Of a stretch of 64,000 bases of DNA, positions 16,410 through 34,835 are shown one piece after another. The notes under the pieces were generated by a model. The model was not told where the DNA came from. It saw only the letters and a program-made list of their open reading frames with translations, and did not search any database. The DNA lies in assembly GCF_028416635.1 (NCBI RefSeq), contig NZ_CP114013.1, positions 1,054,001-1,118,000 on the forward strand. The letters are read 5' to 3'. The stretch comes from Baekduia alba. Its GTDB lineage: Bacteria > Actinomycetota > Thermoleophilia > Solirubrobacterales > Solirubrobacteraceae. Position numbers and translations under genes: made by a program. How positions within the stretch are numbered: the stretch's first letter is position 1; each line of letters starts with the position of its first letter.

Positions 16410-17572
16410 CCCTTCAGGAACCGTTCGACGTCCCGCGCCTTCTCGGCGTCGGAGACGTGGAGGCCGGCGCCGCCGTCCGGCGCGGTCTCGGCGCCGTCGG
16501 GCTTGAGGATGCGGGTCGGCGGCGAGCCGGAGGTGGCGAGCGCGCCGAACAGGCCCAGGAGCGTCGGGCCGGACATGTCGCTCTTGAGCGCCTTGGGCGT
16601 GTTCCAGGCGATCAGCGGCAGGCGCGGGAAGGCCCACGGCGAGATCAGCCGCGACTTCATCGCGCTGAGGATCTTCTGCTGGCGGCGCGCGCGGGTGAGG
16701 TCGGACTCGGCCTTGTTGCAGTCGTTGTGCCGGGTGCGCGCGAGCGCGAGCGCCTGCTTGCCGTCGATGTGCGTCTTGCCCTTCTTCAGGCGCAGCGTGT
16801 AGCCGCCGTTCTTGAAGCCGCCGTTGATCTTCGAGACCACGCAGCCGCCCTCGTAGGTGATGCCGCCCATGGCGTCGATGAGGTCGGGGAAGTTCTGGAA
16901 GTTGACCTCGATCAGGTGGTTGACCTTGATCCCGAGGTAGTTCTCGATGGTCTCGACGGCCAGGGCGGGGCCGCCGAACGCGTACGCCGCGTTGATCTTG
17001 TTGCGACCGTGGCCGGGGATGTCGACGATCGTGTCGCGCGGGATCGAGAGGCGCGAGTTCTTGCCGCCGCCGACGCGCATCAACATGATGGAGTCGCTGC
17101 GGGAGGGGCCTGACGGGTCGGCGCCCGCCTCCTTGGAGCCCTTGGGGCGCTGGTCGGAGCCGAGGACGAGGACGGTGTTGGGGCTGGTGAGCGGGAAGCC
17201 GGCGCCGCCGAGGGCGACCTTGCCGCTGAGGTCGCCCTGCTGGATCTGGGCGCTGATCAGGAACAGGACGAGGCTGAGCCCGACCCACGCGATCGCGCCC
17301 AGGACGACCCACTTGACGATGCGGCCGAAGGAGATCGGGCCGCGGGGCGCGCCCGTGCGTCGGCGGCGCGGGAGGCCGGGAAGGCGGGGGCGGCGCGGCT
17401 GGCCGTCGTCCCGGCGCCCGTCCTCGTCCGGACCGTCGGGCGGCGGCGGGGTTCCCGGGGCGCCCCGGAAGTCGTCGAGCAGCGGCTCGCCCGGCCTGGG
17501 GCCGCGGCGCAGGAAGCTCGGTCCCGAGCGGTACTTCGTGTACTCGGGTGGGGGATCGGAAGGGTGGGGCAT
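16406..17572 (-). CDS. LytR-CpsA-Psr (LCP) cell-wall glycopolymer ligase
   Basis: A 388-residue membrane protein that would transfer lipid-linked glycopolymers onto peptidoglycan outside the membrane. The first 80 residues are a Pro/Arg-rich cytoplasmic tail, followed by one helix (WVVLGAIAWVGLSLVLFLIS, about 92-111). The LCP domain (about 130-300) has LVLGSDQRP, RSDSIMLMRV, SIPRDTIVDIPGHGRNKINA, YLGIKVNHLIEV and ALALARTRHNDCNKAESDLTR, so the conserved Arg and Asp residues are present. The ATG 17572 lies only 21 bp from the start of the divergent ROK kinase, so the two share a promoter region. Confidence 0.9.
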   Translation of the reverse strand: MPHPSDPPPEYTKYRSGPSFLRRGPRPGEPLLDDFRGAPGTPPPPDGPDEDGRRDDGQPRRPRLPGLPRRRRTGAPRGPISFGRIVKWVVLGAIAWVGLSLVLFLISAQIQQGDLSGKVALGGAGFPLTSPNTVLVLGSDQRPKGSKEAGADPSGPSRSDSIMLMRVGGGKNSRLSIPRDTIVDIPGHGRNKINAAYAFGGPALAVETIENYLGIKVNHLIEVNFQNFPDLIDAMGGITYEGGCVVSKINGGFKNGGYTLRLKKGKTHIDGKQALALARTRHNDCNKAESDLTRARRQQKILSAMKSRLISPWAFPRLPLIAWNTPKALKSDMSGPTLLGLFGALATSGSPPTRILKPDGAETAPDGGAGLHVSDAEKARDVERFLKG

Positions 17573-17576
17573 CCAG

Positions 17577-17593
17577 CGGATAGGGTGGTTGGC
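17577..17593. promoter_or_regulatory. Back-to-back -10 boxes of LCP and ROK genes
   Basis: In a 21-bp gap, TAGGGT (17581-17586, plus) lies 7 nt before the ATG at 17594. TATCCG (17582-17577, minus) lies 4 nt before the LCP ATG at 17572. The two boxes overlap, so both transcripts would be leaderless and initiation on each strand should exclude the other. Confidence 0.45.
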
Positions 17594-18547
17594 ATGTCCG
17601 CCGGGTGCGTGATCGGCGTCGATCTCGGCGGCACCAAGCTGCTCGCAGGGGTCGTCGACGCCGACCTGAACGTCCACCATCGGGTGTTCCGCCATGCCCG
17701 CGAGGGCAAGGGGCCCGATCAGCTGCTCGACGTCCTCGTCGCGGCGGTCGAGGAGGCGCGTGAAGCGGCGGATGGAGAGGTTAGGGCAGTCGGCTTCGGT
17801 GTCCCGTCGTTGGTGGATCCTGCAACTGGAGTTGCCAACACGACAGTTCACCTGCCGTTGCGGGATGTCCCGCTGAAGGACGTCATGGCCGAGCGCCTGG
17901 GCGTCCCGGTGGCGGTCGACAACGACGCCAACGCCGCGATGGTCGCCGAGCACCGCCACGGTGCGGCGGTTGGGGCGTCGTGCGCCGCTTTGCTGACGCT
18001 GGGGACCGGGATCGGCGGCGGGATCGTCGCCGACGGTCGCGTCGTCCGCGGCGCGCACGGCGGGGCGGGGGAGTGGGGGCACATGGTGATCGCGGCCGAC
18101 GGACCGCTGTGCACGTGCGGCAACCGCGGGTGCCTGGAGATGCTGGTGAGCGGCACCGCGTTGGGCCGGGCGGCCGCCGAGGCGGCGGTGGCGCTGCCGG
18201 ACTCCGGGTTCGGGCGCGCGCTGGCCGCGGGGCGGTCGATCACCGGGATGCTGGCGACCGAGCTGGCCCATGACGGCGACCCGGTGGCGCGTGACGTGGT
18301 CGCGTCGATCGGCCACTACCTCGGCGTCGGGATCGGGAACGTGGTCAACATCCTCAACCCGGAGGTCGTGGTGGTCGGCGGGGGTGTCATCGCGGCGGGC
18401 GAGCTGCTGCTGGCGCCGGCGCGCAAGGTCGTGGCCGAGCGCGCGCTGGCGCCGTCGCGCGACCAGGTCCGGATCGTGCCGACGCGGTTCGGCGACGCCA
18501 GCGGCATGATCGGCGCGGCGGTCCTGGCCATGGACCTGGTGGCGTGA
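17594..18547 (+). CDS. ROK family sugar kinase (glucokinase-like)
   Basis: A 317-residue cytoplasmic kinase of the ROK family, most like actinobacterial glucokinases. The phosphate-1 loop is GVDLGGTKL (about 8-16). DNDANAAMVAEH holds the catalytic Asp. LGTGIGGGIV is the phosphate-2 loop and E-W-G-H-M precedes the zinc-binding CTCGNRGCLE. VVVGGGV is near the C-terminus. There is no N-terminal helix-turn-helix, so it is an enzyme rather than a repressor. The ATG 17594 follows a -10 box by 7 nt. Its TGA is 1 nt from the GTG of the first mini-ORF leading to rsmI. Confidence 0.9.
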   Translation: MSAGCVIGVDLGGTKLLAGVVDADLNVHHRVFRHAREGKGPDQLLDVLVAAVEEAREAADGEVRAVGFGVPSLVDPATGVANTTVHLPLRDVPLKDVMAERLGVPVAVDNDANAAMVAEHRHGAAVGASCAALLTLGTGIGGGIVADGRVVRGAHGGAGEWGHMVIAADGPLCTCGNRGCLEMLVSGTALGRAAAEAAVALPDSGFGRALAAGRSITGMLATELAHDGDPVARDVVASIGHYLGVGIGNVVNILNPEVVVVGGGVIAAGELLLAPARKVVAERALAPSRDQVRIVPTRFGDASGMIGAAVLAMDLVA

Positions 18548-18548
18548 G

Positions 18549-18626
18549 GTGAGCGCGGACGGCGTCGGTCGTCTGGTGGTGTGCCCGACACTGGGCGTCG
18601 GCGTCGGCGCCGAGGTCGCGTCGTGA
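18549..18626 (+). CDS. Mini-ORF 1 of the rsmI 5' array
   Basis: Twenty-five codons from GTG 18549, one base after the ROK stop codon. Its middle (GRLVVCPT) repeats the RsmI N-terminus, then diverges to LGVGVGAEVAS. Its TGA (18624-18626) overlaps the GTG of the next mini-ORF as GTGA. It could be the original rsmI start before duplication. Translation is unproven. Confidence 0.3.
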   Translation: MSADGVGRLVVCPTLGVGVGAEVAS

Positions 18627-18682
18627 CGGGGCGTTTGGTGGTGTGCCCGACACTGGGCGTCGGCGCCGAGGTCGCGTCGTGA
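18623..18682 (+). CDS. Mini-ORF 2 of the rsmI 5' array
   Basis: Nineteen codons (MTGRLVVCPTLGVGAEVAS). The first ten residues equal those of RsmI. The TGA at 18680-18682 overlaps the next GTG (18679-18681) as GTGA, the geometry used for translational coupling elsewhere in this window. Confidence 0.3.
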   Translation: MTGRLVVCPTLGVGAEVAS

Positions 18683-18738
18683 CGGGGCGTCTGGTGGTGT
18701 GCCCGACGCTGGGCGTCGGCGCCGAGGTCGCGTCGTGA
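18679..18738 (+). CDS. Mini-ORF 3 of the rsmI 5' array
   Basis: The same 19-residue peptide as mini-ORF 2, with two synonymous changes. Its TGA (18736-18738) overlaps the GTG start of rsmI at 18735, so ribosomes finishing it would be placed on the rsmI start. Confidence 0.3.
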   Translation: MTGRLVVCPTLGVGAEVAS

Positions 18739-19544
18739 CGGGGCGTTTGGTGGTGTGCCCGACGCCGATCGGCAACCTGGAGGACATCACGCTGCGGGTG
18801 CTCAGCGCGCTGCGCGAGGCCGACGTGATCGCCTGCGAGGACACGCGCCACACGCGGATCTTGTTGGACAAGTACGGCGTGAGCGCGCGGACCGTGAGCT
18901 ACCACGAGCACAACGAGGCCTCGCGGGCGTCGGAGCTGGTGGCGCGGATCCGGGACGGCGAGACCGTGGCGCTGGTGAGCGACGCCGGCATGCCGTTGGT
19001 CAACGACCCCGGCTTCGTGCTGGTGCAGGCCTGCGTGGCCGCCGGGATCGGCGTCGAGGTGCTGCCAGGGCCGTCGGCGGCGCTGACGGCCCTGGTCGCG
19101 TCGGGGCTGCCGGCGACGACGTGGCGGTTCGTCGGGTTCCTGCCGCGCAAGCAGGGCGAGTTGTCGTCCTTGCTCGGCTCGGCGGCGGAGACCCTGGTCG
19201 CCTTCGAATCCCCGCGTCGCCTGTCCGCGTCGTTGGAGATCCTCACCGCGCTCGATCCCGGTCGCCCGGTCGCGGTCTGCCGCGAGCTGACCAAGCTCCA
19301 CGAGGAGATCCTGCGCGGCACCGCCTCCGAGTTGTCCTCGCACTTCTCCTCGACCGAGCCCCGCGGCGAGATCGTCGTCGTCATCGGCGCCGCGCCGGCC
19401 GAAGACCTCGAGCTCGGCCCCGCGCTGTCGGCGCTGACGAAGCTGGTCGAGGCGGGAGCGAAGACACGCCCGGCGGCGGCCGTCGTGTCCGAGCTGACGG
19501 GCGTACCGGCCAACACGCTGTACAAGGCGCTGACGGACCGCTGA
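18735..19544 (+). CDS. rsmI: 16S rRNA (cytidine1402-2'-O)-methyltransferase
   Basis: A 269-residue tetrapyrrole-methylase-fold enzyme that 2'-O-methylates C1402 of 16S rRNA with SAM. Characteristic segments are VCPTPIGNLEDITLR (8-22), ADVIACEDTRHTRILLDKYG, LVSDAGMPLVNDPG (SAM loop), LPGPSAALTAL, FVGFLPRK and CRELTKLHEE. Length is normal. The start GTG 18735 places MTGRLVVCPTPIGN as the N-terminus, which matches the family. An open frame continues upstream, but that is repeat DNA. Translation is probably coupled to the mini-ORFs before it, since no Shine-Dalgarno is present. Confidence 0.95.
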   Translation: MTGRLVVCPTPIGNLEDITLRVLSALREADVIACEDTRHTRILLDKYGVSARTVSYHEHNEASRASELVARIRDGETVALVSDAGMPLVNDPGFVLVQACVAAGIGVEVLPGPSAALTALVASGLPATTWRFVGFLPRKQGELSSLLGSAAETLVAFESPRRLSASLEILTALDPGRPVAVCRELTKLHEEILRGTASELSSHFSSTEPRGEIVVVIGAAPAEDLELGPALSALTKLVEAGAKTRPAAAVVSELTGVPANTLYKALTDR

Positions 19545-30106: not shown

Positions 30107-30523
30107 ATGGCAGGCGACGGCGCCGAGCCGCTGGAGCTCGCCGACGGCGCCGCGGTGGCCGCGGCGCTGGGCGACCACGACGGGCCGCTGGTCATGGTGG
30201 CGTCCGACGTCCCCGCGCTCGGCCTCCAGCATCTGGAGGCGGTGCGCGGCGACCTCGCCGCCGGCGTCCTGCTCAGCACCGCCGCGACCGGCGACGGCAC
30301 GCCGTTCCTGGTCGCGCTCTCCCGGCCCGAGCCCGACCTCCTCGGGCTCATCGGCGCGCCCTTCAGCGACCTGCTCGCGGCGGCGGCCGGCCACGAGCGC
30401 GAGCTCGGCATGGTCCGCGCGGAGCGCCGCCTGGCGTCGATCGCCGACGCCCGGGCGGTCCAGGCCGACCCGTTGACGTCGCCCGCGCTGCGCGCGCTCC
30501 TGGCGCCGCTCGGCCGGCCCTAG
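30107..30523 (+). CDS. DUF2064/nucleotidyltransferase-like protein, likely 5'-truncated
   Basis: From ATG 30107, 138 residues remain. GPLVMVASDVPALGLQHLEA and VLLSTAATGDGTPFLVALS match the core of the DUF2064 (MobA/CofC-like) glycosyl- and nucleotidyltransferases. Coding-like sequence continues upstream in the same frame to about 29981 (ALLDALAAEREPALRARLG) with no ATG, GTG or TTG before a stop at 29894. The usual N-terminal VKTRL nucleotide-binding segment is missing. Either the gene lost its 5' end next to the phosphorylase gene or it uses a rare start. The stop overlaps the convergent gene by 4 bp. Confidence 0.5.
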   Translation: MAGDGAEPLELADGAAVAAALGDHDGPLVMVASDVPALGLQHLEAVRGDLAAGVLLSTAATGDGTPFLVALSRPEPDLLGLIGAPFSDLLAAAAGHERELGMVRAERRLASIADARAVQADPLTSPALRALLAPLGRP

Positions 30524-31845
30524 CCGACCTGCGCGCGCGCCGCGCGCGAGTACGCGGAGATCACGCGCTCGCAGTGGCGTGTGTGCGGGCGCACGCGGCC
30601 GTAGACGACGGTGTCGCCGCCGGGGCCGCAGTCGACCGACGCCGGCCGCCGGGTGAACGCCATGACGGAGTCGTTGCCGTTGCCGCCCTTGACGACGTCG
30701 GCGCCGCCGCCACGCAGGCGGATCACGTCGTCGCCGTCGCCGCCGCCGATCGTGTTGTCGCCCTCGCCGCCCTGGAGCTGGTCGGCGCCCGGGCCGCCGT
30801 CGACGTGGTTGGTGCCGCGGCCGCCGTAGACGGTGTCGGCCCCGGGCCCGCCGGCGAGCTCGTCGTGGGCGCCGTGCCCGCCGTCGCCGTGGTTGCGGTC
30901 GCCCCACAGGACGTCGTCGCCCGCGGCGCCGAGCAGCGTGTCGGAGCCGCGGCCGCCGAGCAGGTTGTCGTCGCGGTCGGTGCCGTGGACGGTCGCGCCG
31001 GCGTCGGAGGCGAGCTCGCGGCGGCCGACGGTCGGGTCCTGGACCGCGTCGGCCTCGACGACGTCCTCGCAGTTGCGGATCTCGCCGCGGCGCACCGCCT
31101 GCGCGTTGGAGATGCCGCCGGGCGCGTCATAGGGGTTGACGACGACCGTGTCGGTGCCGGGGCCGCAGTCGACGTCGGCGACCGCTGTGCCGTTGTTGAC
31201 GTAGACGACGTCGTCGCCGTCGCCCGCGTCGACGTGATCGGGGCCCGAGTCGGCGTAGACGACGTCGTCCCCGCCTCCCGCCCTGATGGTGTCCGCCCCC
31301 GAGCCGCCGTGGACGAGGTCGTCGCCGTCGCCCGCGTCGAGGACGTCGGGCGCGGCGCCGCCGTCGAGGACGTCGTTGCCGCTGCCGGCCTCGAGACGGT
31401 CGTGGCCGAAGCCGCCGTAGAGGCGGTCGGCGCCGTCGCCGCCCTGGAGCTGGTCGTCGCCCGAGCCGCCGTCGAGCTCGTCCGCGCCGCCCCGGCCGAT
31501 CGCGGTGTCGGCGCCGGTGCCGCCGTCGAGGTGGTCCGGGCCGGTGCCGCCCACGAGGCGGTCGCCGCCCTCCTCGCCGAGCAGCACGCCGCCGCCGGCG
31601 CTGCGGACGGTCAGGCGGTCCGGGCCGGGCAGGCCGAGCAGCGGCGCGGCCGCGGGCTGCGACAGCGGCGGCAGCAGCGGCGTGGTCGGCAGCGCGGCGA
31701 CGCTTGCGACCGCGAGCGCGGGCGACAGGTCGGCCGGCAGCGCCGGCAACGCGGCGGTCTGGGCGGAGGCGGCGGGGGCGACCGCGGTCACGAGCGCGAG
31801 CGCGGGCAGCACGACGAGACGGCGAGCGGTGGGGGCGAAGCGCAT
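30520..31845 (-). CDS. Secreted RTX-type calcium-binding repeat protein
   Basis: A 441-residue exported protein. A signal peptide (residues 1-28, LVVLPALALVTAVAPAASAQ) precedes an Ala/Pro/Leu linker and then two blocks of GGxGxDxLxGG-type nonapeptides (about 85-205 and 290-395), such as LVGGTGPDHLDGGTGADTAI. These fold as a calcium beta-roll. Each block ends in a VDCGPG(T/G)DTVV segment, and RxxxHCE/RNCED Cys segments occur, a layout common in actinobacterial calcium-binding proteins. No type I secretion genes are nearby and a Sec signal is present. ATG 31845 is preferred over the upstream GTG because it starts the signal peptide. Confidence 0.85.
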   Translation of the reverse strand: MRFAPTARRLVVLPALALVTAVAPAASAQTAALPALPADLSPALAVASVAALPTTPLLPPLSQPAAAPLLGLPGPDRLTVRSAGGGVLLGEEGGDRLVGGTGPDHLDGGTGADTAIGRGGADELDGGSGDDQLQGGDGADRLYGGFGHDRLEAGSGNDVLDGGAAPDVLDAGDGDDLVHGGSGADTIRAGGGDDVVYADSGPDHVDAGDGDDVVYVNNGTAVADVDCGPGTDTVVVNPYDAPGGISNAQAVRRGEIRNCEDVVEADAVQDPTVGRRELASDAGATVHGTDRDDNLLGGRGSDTLLGAAGDDVLWGDRNHGDGGHGAHDELAGGPGADTVYGGRGTNHVDGGPGADQLQGGEGDNTIGGGDGDDVIRLRGGGADVVKGGNGNDSVMAFTRRPASVDCGPGGDTVVYGRVRPHTRHCERVISAYSRAARAQVG

Positions 31846-32026
31846 CACGACATGGGTCGACGGCGCGACCGCGACGCTGCAGGTCGCGGACCTCCGGCGG
31901 ACCATCGTCCGACCCGGCGCGCCGCGCGCGCCAACCCGACGATCGGGTGCATCCGCAGCCGTTGCCGCCTTGCCCCGGGGGCGCCGGCGCCCTACAGTGC
32001 ACGGACCTTCAGCGCACGACTTCGCT
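31846..32026. other. Intergenic region, no gene seen
   Basis: This is the leader of the RTX-type gene on the minus strand. On the plus strand a TACAGT box at 31993-31998 could start a short untranslated RNA toward the dyads at 32027-32075. No convincing open frame exists. Confidence 0.3.
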
Positions 32027-33647: not shown

Positions 33648-34670
33648 GTGAGCACCCCGACGCGGACGATGCCGGTGGCGACGAGCCTCCCGATCGACTA
33701 CGACAAGCGGCTGATGCTGTTCTCGGGGCGGGCGAACCCCGAGCTGGCCGCGAAGATCGGCAGCAAGCTCGGGGTCGACCTCGGGCCGATCACCCTCAAG
33801 ACCTTCAAGAACGGCGAGGTCTACTGCCGCTACGAGGAGTCGATCCGCGGCGCGGACGTCTTCCTCATCCAGCCGATCTGCGCCAACCCGGCGACCGGGA
33901 TCTCCACCAACGACGCGCTGATGGAGCTGCTGGTGATGATCGACGCCGCGATCGGCGCCAGCGCCCACCGCGTCATCGCCGTCACGCCGTGGTACGGCTA
34001 CAGCCGCCAGGACAAGAAGTCCGCGCCGCGCGAGCCGATCTCCGCGCGCCTCGTCGCCCGGATGCTCGAGTCCGCCGGCGCCGACCGCGTCCTGACGATG
34101 GACCTGCACGCGGGCCAGGTCCAGGGCTTCTTCAACATCCCGGTCGACCACATGACCGCGCTGATGATGCTCACGCAGCACTTCGACGACATGCAGCTCA
34201 ACGACCTCGTCGTCGTGGCGCCGGACGCCGGCCGCGTGAAGCTGAACAAGAAGTTCGCCTCCAAGATCGGCGCCGAGCTGGCGATCCTGGACAAGGAGCG
34301 CCCCGCCCAGCAGGTCGCCGAGATCGGCTACGTGATCGGCGACGTCAAGGGCAAGACCGCGGTGATCGTCGACGACATGATCGACACGGCCGGGACCCTG
34401 AAGGCCGCGGCGCACACGGTCCGCGACGAGGGCGCCGAGCGCGTCTTCGCCGCCGCCACGCACCCGGTCTTCTCCGGCAACGCCTACGAGAACCTCGTCG
34501 ACGCCGGCTTCGAGAAGATCGTCGTCACCGACACGATCCCGCTGCGGCCCGGCGCGCCGGAGAACATCCAGGTGCTGTCCTGCGCCGACCTGCTCACCGA
34601 CTCGATCCGCCGGATCTTCACCGACGACTCGGTGTCCGAGGTCTTCGGCGGAGAGAACCAGCTGTTCTGA
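33648..34670 (+). CDS. prs: Ribose-phosphate pyrophosphokinase
   Basis: A 340-residue enzyme forming PRPP from ribose 5-phosphate and ATP for nucleotide, His and Trp synthesis. It contains FSGRANPELAAKIG, KTFKNGEVYCRYEESIRGAD, PWYGYSRQDKK, the Mg-binding DLHAGQVQGFFNIPVDH and the PRPP loop VIVDDMIDTAGTL (about 242-254). It ends EVFGGENQLF. Length is slightly above the 315-325 norm because of the N-terminal 20 residues. GTG 33648 is chosen; ATG 33636 is also in frame. The last codons and stop are duplicated three times in a tandem array downstream. Confidence 0.96.
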   Translation: MSTPTRTMPVATSLPIDYDKRLMLFSGRANPELAAKIGSKLGVDLGPITLKTFKNGEVYCRYEESIRGADVFLIQPICANPATGISTNDALMELLVMIDAAIGASAHRVIAVTPWYGYSRQDKKSAPREPISARLVARMLESAGADRVLTMDLHAGQVQGFFNIPVDHMTALMMLTQHFDDMQLNDLVVVAPDAGRVKLNKKFASKIGAELAILDKERPAQQVAEIGYVIGDVKGKTAVIVDDMIDTAGTLKAAAHTVRDEGAERVFAAATHPVFSGNAYENLVDAGFEKIVVTDTIPLRPGAPENIQVLSCADLLTDSIRRIFTDDSVSEVFGGENQLF

Positions 34671-34671
34671 C

Positions 34672-34725
34672 ATGTCCACCGTCGCCCGCATCTCCGCTGC
34701 GGGCGGAGAGAACCAGCTGTTCTGA
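34672..34725 (+). CDS. Mini-ORF 1 of the prs 3' array
   Basis: Seventeen codons, MSTVARISAAGGENQLF, with the ATG one base after the prs TGA (TGA-C-ATG). The last seven residues copy the Prs C-terminus. Reinitiation after prs is plausible but unproven. Confidence 0.3.
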   Translation: MSTVARISAAGGENQLF

Positions 34726-34726
34726 C

Positions 34727-34780
34727 ATGTCCACCGTCGCCGGCATCTCCGCTGCGGGCGGAGAGAACCAGCTGTTCTGA
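34727..34780 (+). CDS. Mini-ORF 2 of the prs 3' array
   Basis: Seventeen codons, MSTVAGISAAGGENQLF, one base behind the previous TGA. It differs from the first by Arg to Gly. Confidence 0.3.
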   Translation: MSTVAGISAAGGENQLF

Positions 34781-34781
34781 C

Positions 34782-34835
34782 ATGTCCACCGTCGCCGGCA
34801 TCTCCGCTGCGGGCGGAGAGAGCCAGCTGTTCTAG
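34782..34835 (+). CDS. Mini-ORF 3 of the prs 3' array
   Basis: Seventeen codons, MSTVAGISAAGGESQLF, ending TAG. The following gene's apparent CTG start is 8 nt downstream of this stop. Confidence 0.3.
   Translation: MSTVAGISAAGGESQLF

What the first reader, a model, noticed from the sequence alone, without database searches (positions are those of the whole stretch)
18549..18764. Chain of coupled mini-ORFs built from a repeated rsmI 5' end
Seen: a 56-bp unit is repeated in front of rsmI so that the coding start (GRLVVCPT) occurs four times. Because 56 is 18 codons plus 2 nt, each copy forms a 19-25-codon ORF whose TGA overlaps the next GTG as GTGA, ending on the true rsmI start; the first GTG is 1 nt behind the ROK stop. 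The two variable positions (TTG/CTG, ACA/ACG) are both synonymous. Inference: this may be a translational relay or attenuator that tunes rsmI dose by repeat number, or simply a fresh slippage expansion that keeps rsmI translatable because of its frame geometry.
Basis: partly seen in the sequence, partly recalled or inferred. Interest (0 to 1): 0.85.

Follow-up and report, generated by a model that had tools for sequence, protein, structure and literature searches.

The report
Gene-start minisatellite with coupled mini-ORFs
A short DNA repeat that copies the first codons of the rRNA-methylase gene rsmI is stacked in front of the gene so that each copy makes a tiny reading frame ending where the next begins; it is one of many ~55-base repeats in this bacterial genus, resembles the variable repeats of the tuberculosis bacterium, and probably persists because it leaves the gene readable rather than because it is a proven switch.

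Summary
Between a ROK-kinase gene and rsmI, three mini-ORFs (25, 19 and 19 codons) and rsmI are linked by GTGA stop/start overlaps, from a 56-bp unit that repeats rsmI's first ~8 codons. Two things change its meaning. (1) It is not fresh: a congeneric species (G003, RsmI 74% identical) has one homologous 56-bp unit at the same site, with ATGA overlaps on both sides and the shared peptide core GRLVVCPTLGVGAE; three other congeners with an assembled rsmI lack it, and so do the other 144 family genomes searched. (2) It is one of a genus-wide class. In 1.66 Mb of this genome every near-perfect tandem array with period >=30 has a 54-58-bp unit (6 of 6), and two more single-spacer sites have 53 bp. 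They tend to sit at gene ends; several form coupled mini-ORFs (prs, nuoE-nuoF, csaA in G006), others only lengthen proteins in frame. Best reading: a locally generated, MIRU/VNTR-like minisatellite that turns over in copy number and is retained where it keeps downstream translation intact. A rheostat for RsmI is possible but untested; frame geometry alone is weak evidence (67% of shuffled units also keep rsmI reachable).

The parts
17594..18547 (+). upstream cistron, ROK-family glucokinase-like gene; stop TGA 18545-18547 (start codon not settled)
   Evidence: TIGR00744 ROK glucokinase E 1.9e-63 on 17594-18544; ORF 17564-18547
18549..18626 (+). mini-ORF 1, GTG, 25 aa, divergent first copy with a 6-bp insertion
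18623..18682 (+). mini-ORF 2, GTG, 19 aa, VTGRLVVCPTLGVGAEVAS*; GTGA overlaps at both ends; unit 18623-18678 (56 bp)
18679..18738 (+). mini-ORF 3, GTG, 19 aa, same peptide; unit 18679-18734 (56 bp); stop overlaps rsmI start
18735..19544 (+). rsmI, 16S rRNA (cytidine1402-2'-O)-methyltransferase; its first ~8 codons are the repeated segment E
   Evidence: TIGR00096 E 3.5e-70
18600..18765 (+). 56-bp tandem array as called by TRF
   Evidence: period 56, 3.0 copies, 97%
34647..34835 (+). sister array, 55-bp unit at the prs 3' end (TRF 34647-34833); three 17-aa mini-ORFs MSTVA(R/G)ISAAGGE(N/S)QLF* at 34672-34725, 34727-34780, 34782-34835, each 1 nt after the preceding TGA
   Evidence: homologous insert in G003

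Best explanation
The rsmI array is one member of a genus-wide class of ~53-58-bp minisatellites. Each unit is a short end of a host gene (E, 9-35 bp; here rsmI's first ~8 codons) plus a unique insert (X, ~20-45 bp), in the order E-X-E(-X-E). An initial event duplicated the rsmI start around an insert before G003 and this species split; slippage or recombination then changed the copy number and homogenised the copies together with the real rsmI start (three extra starts here, one in G003, exact loss back to one start in G006). Because E carries the GTGA start/stop overlap and 56 = 3x18+2, every copy becomes a mini-cistron whose stop is the next start. Ribosomes terminating on the ROK gene can therefore be handed down the chain by termination-reinitiation to rsmI, and the array is tolerated. 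Shown: sequence, homology, copy-number differences between species, period class, co-occurrence. Inferred: birth by duplication around an insert, coupled translation, near-neutral retention.
For: Homologous 56-bp unit with ATGA overlaps on both sides in G003, absent from other congeners with rsmI and from all other family genomes by pattern (2 of 146 genomes). Period class: 6 of 6 near-perfect arrays with period >=30 in 1.66 Mb are 54-58 bp, plus two 53-bp E-X-E sites; 8 of 14 repeat families between 40 and 120 bp fall in 53-58, binomial P 2e-6, the rest being codon-multiple protein repeats. Orthologous arrays vary in copy number: serS-upstream 3E here, 2E in G004, 1E in G006/G001; dehydratase C-terminus 3 here, 2 in G006, 0 in G001; prs array here and in G003, none in five other congeners. 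Same coupled architecture elsewhere: nuoE-[mini-ORF]-nuoF here; a gene-[mini-ORF]-csaA in G006 with GTGA at both ends where this genome has a direct GTGA overlap. Members inside proteins are in frame (57, 57, 54 bp). Five-gene tree puts G003 outside G004+(G000, G006), so presence in G003 and here with absence in G006 fits old gain plus loss.
Against: No expression, ribosome-profiling or read-level data. Only 28% of the genome and 400 kb each of G001 and G006 were surveyed. In shuffled X with random length class, 67% (rsmI) and 20-27% (nuoF) of units still leave the gene reachable, so the chain does not prove selection for coupling. G003 and G004 are incomplete MAGs. The whole X (19/26 identical) is not clearly more conserved than 4-fold sites (62%), though its first 19 nt are 18/19 identical.
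Confidence: 0.7

Rival explanations
1. A selected translational relay or rheostat: the number of coupled mini-cistrons sets RsmI dose, and copy number is an adaptive, reversible setting.
For: GTGA/ATGA geometry kept in two species; GAGG 7 nt and GGAG 8 nt upstream of the next start in this species and G003 respectively; the same geometry at prs, nuoF and csaA. In M. tuberculosis, repeat length upstream of fpg1 correlates with mRNA level (PMC2734929).
Against: The same repeat class occurs where no relay is possible (serS-upstream array, in-frame protein arrays). The array is absent in G006 and G001, where the ROK gene end abuts rsmI directly. No expression data.
Confidence: 0.15
2. A fresh, strain-specific slippage expansion with no history.
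For: Copies 2-4 differ at only two synonymous sites.
Against: Homologous 56-bp unit with the same peptide core in G003. Near-identity is better read as recent turnover of an old array.
Confidence: 0.05
3. A mobile, dispersed MIRU-like element that inserts at start codons.
For: Mini-ORF with -4 overlaps, as described for MIRUs (PMC12548453).
Against: The unit contains rsmI's own 5' end. No dispersed copy in the genome by DNA search. Inserts of different arrays are unrelated to each other.
Confidence: 0.04
4. Off-target CRISPR spacer integration (target duplication plus ~32-bp insert).
For: E-X-E layout with ~22-26-bp E and ~31-bp X in several arrays.
Against: No Cas1 in this genome while controls ring; E ranges 9-35 bp while only the sum is constant.
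Confidence: 0.02
5. Assembly artefact.
For: Short repeats can be mis-assembled; no reads were available.
Against: Single-contig genome; variant-bearing copies; an independent assembly (G003) carries the homologous unit.
Confidence: 0.03

Closest known systems
Mycobacterial interspersed repetitive units (MIRUs; Supply et al. 1997, as summarised in PMC12548453)
   Same: Short tandem units between operon genes with a small ORF coupled to the downstream gene by a 4-nt overlap; variable copy number
   Different: MIRUs are a dispersed family of related sequences thought to be mobile; here each unit is built from the adjacent gene's own end and is unique to its locus; not a mycobacterium
M. tuberculosis VNTR loci: leuA VNTR4155 (57 bp + extra 9 bp, PMC2704214), VNTR3239 upstream of fpg1 (55- and 79-bp units, PMC2734929), dop VNTR2372 (57-bp duplication, PMC12817950)
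   Same: Same unit-size class, partial extra copy, gene-internal or gene-start locations, intergenic in related species only a few bp
   Different: No chain of stop/start-overlapping gene-start copies is described for these in the passages read; strain-level polymorphism is documented there, only species-level here
Translational coupling by termination-reinitiation / leader mini-cistrons
   Same: Stop/start overlaps (GTGA, ATGA, TGATG) in an operon
   Different: Normally one short ORF, not a repeat-generated series

Membership tests
MIRU | small ORF whose ends overlap flanking cistrons (-4 nt) | tested here: met
   GTGA at every internal junction; first GTG is 1 nt after the ROK stop; ATGA on both sides in G003
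MIRU | members are homologous and dispersed in the genome | tested here: not met
   no other copy in G000; inserts of nine arrays mutually unrelated except orthologues
MIRU | copy number varies | tested here: met
   between species: three upstream copies in G000, one in G003, none in G006/G001/G005
Bacterial minisatellite / VNTR | tandem head-to-tail near-identical units of 10-100 bp | tested here: met
   56 bp x 3.0, 97%
Bacterial minisatellite / VNTR | copy number polymorphic among strains | not testable with these tools
   one genome per species is held; no reads
Leader-peptide attenuator | mutually exclusive RNA structures or regulatory codons controlling the downstream gene | tested here: inconclusive
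   fold of 18540-18780 z = -1.72, 11 of 200 shuffles as stable
CRISPR (off-target array) | Cas1 integrase in the genome | tested here: not met
   PF01867 absent in G000; control genomes positive

The most novel reading that the evidence does not exclude
This genus has a DNA-duplication process with a ~55-bp ruler that repeatedly plants coupled mini-cistrons at operon junctions, and their copy number acts as a reversible, heritable rheostat on translation of the gene behind them (rsmI, nuoF, csaA, the gene after prs).
Probability: 0.15. Interest if true: 0.8.

Novelty: new variant of a known kind. Interest (0 to 1): 0.52.

Why it matters
It extends MIRU/VNTR-type biology to a distant actinobacterial lineage and shows that such mini-cistron chains can arise from the host gene's own ends, without a mobile element. 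The narrow 53-58-bp unit size, shared with several M. tuberculosis VNTRs, points to an unexplained length preference in how such duplications form, which can now be tested by comparative genomics. If copy number changes output, it would be a simple slippage-driven tuner of an rRNA-modifying enzyme.

Tried and rejected
Dispersed element: no other copies, inserts unrelated. CRISPR off-target integration: no Cas1. Fresh slippage only: contradicted by G003. Selection for the chain from its mere existence: shuffles give 67% (rsmI) and 20-27% (nuoF), so not evidence; the csaA row used a wrong frame offset and is ignored, and the prs null used GTG for the real CTG start, so it is not relied on. Snap-back (hairpin-templated) origin of X: inverted repeats straddle an E/X border in most arrays (CATCTTCGA-C-TCGAAGATG at nuoF, CCGACGC-TGG-GCGTCGG at rsmI); combined P 6e-4 over nine arrays, but the test was designed after seeing them and boundaries were set by hand, so it stays a lead.

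Full report
WHAT IS THERE. In the window, a ROK glucokinase-like gene ends at 18547 and rsmI (TIGR00096, E 3.5e-70) starts at GTG 18735. Between them lie three mini-ORFs, 18549-18626 (25 aa), 18623-18682 (19 aa) and 18679-18738 (19 aa). Each TGA overlaps the next GTG as GTGA, the last being the rsmI start. TRF gives 56 bp x 3.0 copies at 97%. Copies 2-4 differ only at TTG/CTG and ACA/ACG, both synonymous; copy 1 is divergent and carries a 6-bp insertion.

NOT FRESH. The genome (5.86 Mb, one contig) has its nearest named RsmI relatives in Solirubrobacteraceae. Seven genomes of its genus are held. In G003 (RsmI 74% identical) the same junction carries one unit of exactly 56 bp, encoding MSGRLVVCPTLGVGAERSA*, with ATGA overlapping the ROK stop and ATGA overlapping the rsmI start. 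Aligned without gaps, 42 of 56 bases match a unit here; the insert's first 19 nt match at 18, although 4-fold degenerate sites of rsmI match at only 62%; over the whole insert (19/26) the excess is not significant. G006, G001 and G005 have no unit; G002 and G004 lack an assembled rsmI. A pattern search of 146 family genomes finds the unit only in G000 and G003. A five-gene tree places G003 outside G004+(G000, G006), so gain before that node and loss in G006 is the simplest history. In each species the mini-ORF start resembles that species' own rsmI start (GTGACGGGGCG here, ATGAGCGGGCG in G003), as expected of concerted turnover by slippage or recombination.

ONE OF A CLASS. TRF over 1.66 Mb of this genome finds six arrays with period >=30 and >=90% match, with periods 54, 55, 56, 57, 57 and 58 bp. 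A direct-repeat scan adds two single-spacer sites of 53 bp. Eight of 14 repeat families between 40 and 120 bp fall in 53-58 bp (P 2e-6 against a uniform spread); the others are multiples of 3 inside repetitive protein segments. Each array reads E-X-E..., E being 9-35 bp of host sequence (mostly a gene end) and X a unique insert; E and X vary but the sum is nearly constant. Sites: rsmI start; prs 3' end (window 34647-34835); nuoF start (genome 785827); lepA-like 3' end (3530660); end of the gene before serS (792562); C-terminus of a sugar-nucleotide dehydratase-like gene (88813); N-terminus of a membrane-protein gene (97775); inside an acyl-CoA dehydrogenase-like gene (297307). No near-perfect array of this class was found in 400 kb of G001; one 53-bp site occurs in 400 kb of G006. 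In the mixed set of short loci from other genomes the only near-perfect arrays of this class were re-fetched G000 loci.

COPY NUMBER DIFFERS BETWEEN SPECIES AT OTHER SITES TOO. Before serS: three E here, two in G004, one in G006 and G001. Dehydratase C-terminus: three here, two in G006, none in G001. Acyl-CoA dehydrogenase: present here, absent in G006. Prs 3' end: three inserts here; G003 has a related insert sharing CCGGCATCTCCGCTGCG; none in G001, G002, G004, G005 or G006. nuoF unit: here only; csaA unit: G006 only among the four species with the gene found.

COUPLED MINI-ORFS RECUR. In the prs array each 17-aa mini-ORF MSTVA(R/G)ISAAGGE(N/S)QLF* starts 1 nt after the previous TGA. In G003 the sequence reads prs TGATG mini-ORF TGATG short ORF GTGA next gene (sequence; reading is mine). 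nuoE and nuoF are joined by MSTPQQPLIFDSKMRSERA*, with GTGA before and TGATG after. In G006, VRLARRAPSSFRFGSERP* sits between a membrane-protein gene and csaA with GTGA on both sides, where this genome has the two genes directly overlapping. Yet the serS-upstream array contains no start codon for a mini-ORF, and three arrays are simply in frame within proteins. The repeat process therefore does not depend on mini-ORFs.

MECHANISM. Inferred: a duplication around a short insert, then slippage or recombination, gives the arrays; selection removes those that break proteins or operons. At rsmI the unit contains the GTGA start, so any period of 2 mod 3 makes a mini-ORF ending on the next start, and any period of 0 mod 3 would make an in-frame extension. 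Simulated shuffles confirm that about two thirds of random units keep rsmI reachable. The geometry is therefore what tolerance alone would leave, and is not evidence of tuning. A GAGG 7 nt before each internal GTG could help reinitiation (inference). The RNA fold is unremarkable (z -1.7). Hairpin-forming inverted repeats at E/X borders (combined P 6e-4, post hoc) hint at snap-back template switching in the birth of X, but this is only a lead.

RELATION TO KNOWN SYSTEMS. MIRUs of mycobacteria carry a small ORF coupled at -4 nt to the gene where they sit (PMC12548453). M. tuberculosis VNTRs have similar units: 57 bp plus an extra 9 bp in leuA (PMC2704214); 55 and 79 bp upstream of fpg1, where length correlates with mRNA level and related species have only a few bp (PMC2734929); 57 bp at dop (PMC12817950). 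The present arrays work like MIRUs but fail the MIRU criterion of a dispersed homologous family. They are best called locus-specific minisatellites with coupled mini-cistrons: a new variant of a known kind.

LIMITS. No reads, transcripts or profiling; survey partial; two of the informative relatives are incomplete MAGs; organism not named by the tools, family inferred from relatives.

Noticed in passing
34647-34835: Second, 55-bp array with three coupled 17-aa mini-ORFs at the prs 3' end; the following gene has no ATG/GTG/TTG at the homologous start in this species (CTG), while G003 and G006 have GTG there.
   Followed up: partly
genome 53-58-bp repeats (G000:C1 88813, 97775, 297307, 785827, 792562, 3530660): All near-perfect long-period tandem repeats in the surveyed 28% of the genome have units of 53-58 bp; no reason for the fixed length was found.
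   Followed up: partly
G000:C1 3530660-3530734 (minus strand): A 53-bp duplication gives a lepA-like gene an earlier stop and leaves the old C-terminal codons in a separate ATG mini-ORF.
   Followed up: no
30520-31905 (minus strand): Putative secreted protein (461 aa) with many GGxGxD-type nonapeptide (RTX-like, 27-bp period) repeats.
   Followed up: no
L218 (G003 prs 3' end): A longer mini-ORF (about 28 aa) built of two 30-bp units, followed by a 7-codon ORF, joins prs to the next gene by TGATG, TGATG and GTGA overlaps.
   Followed up: partly
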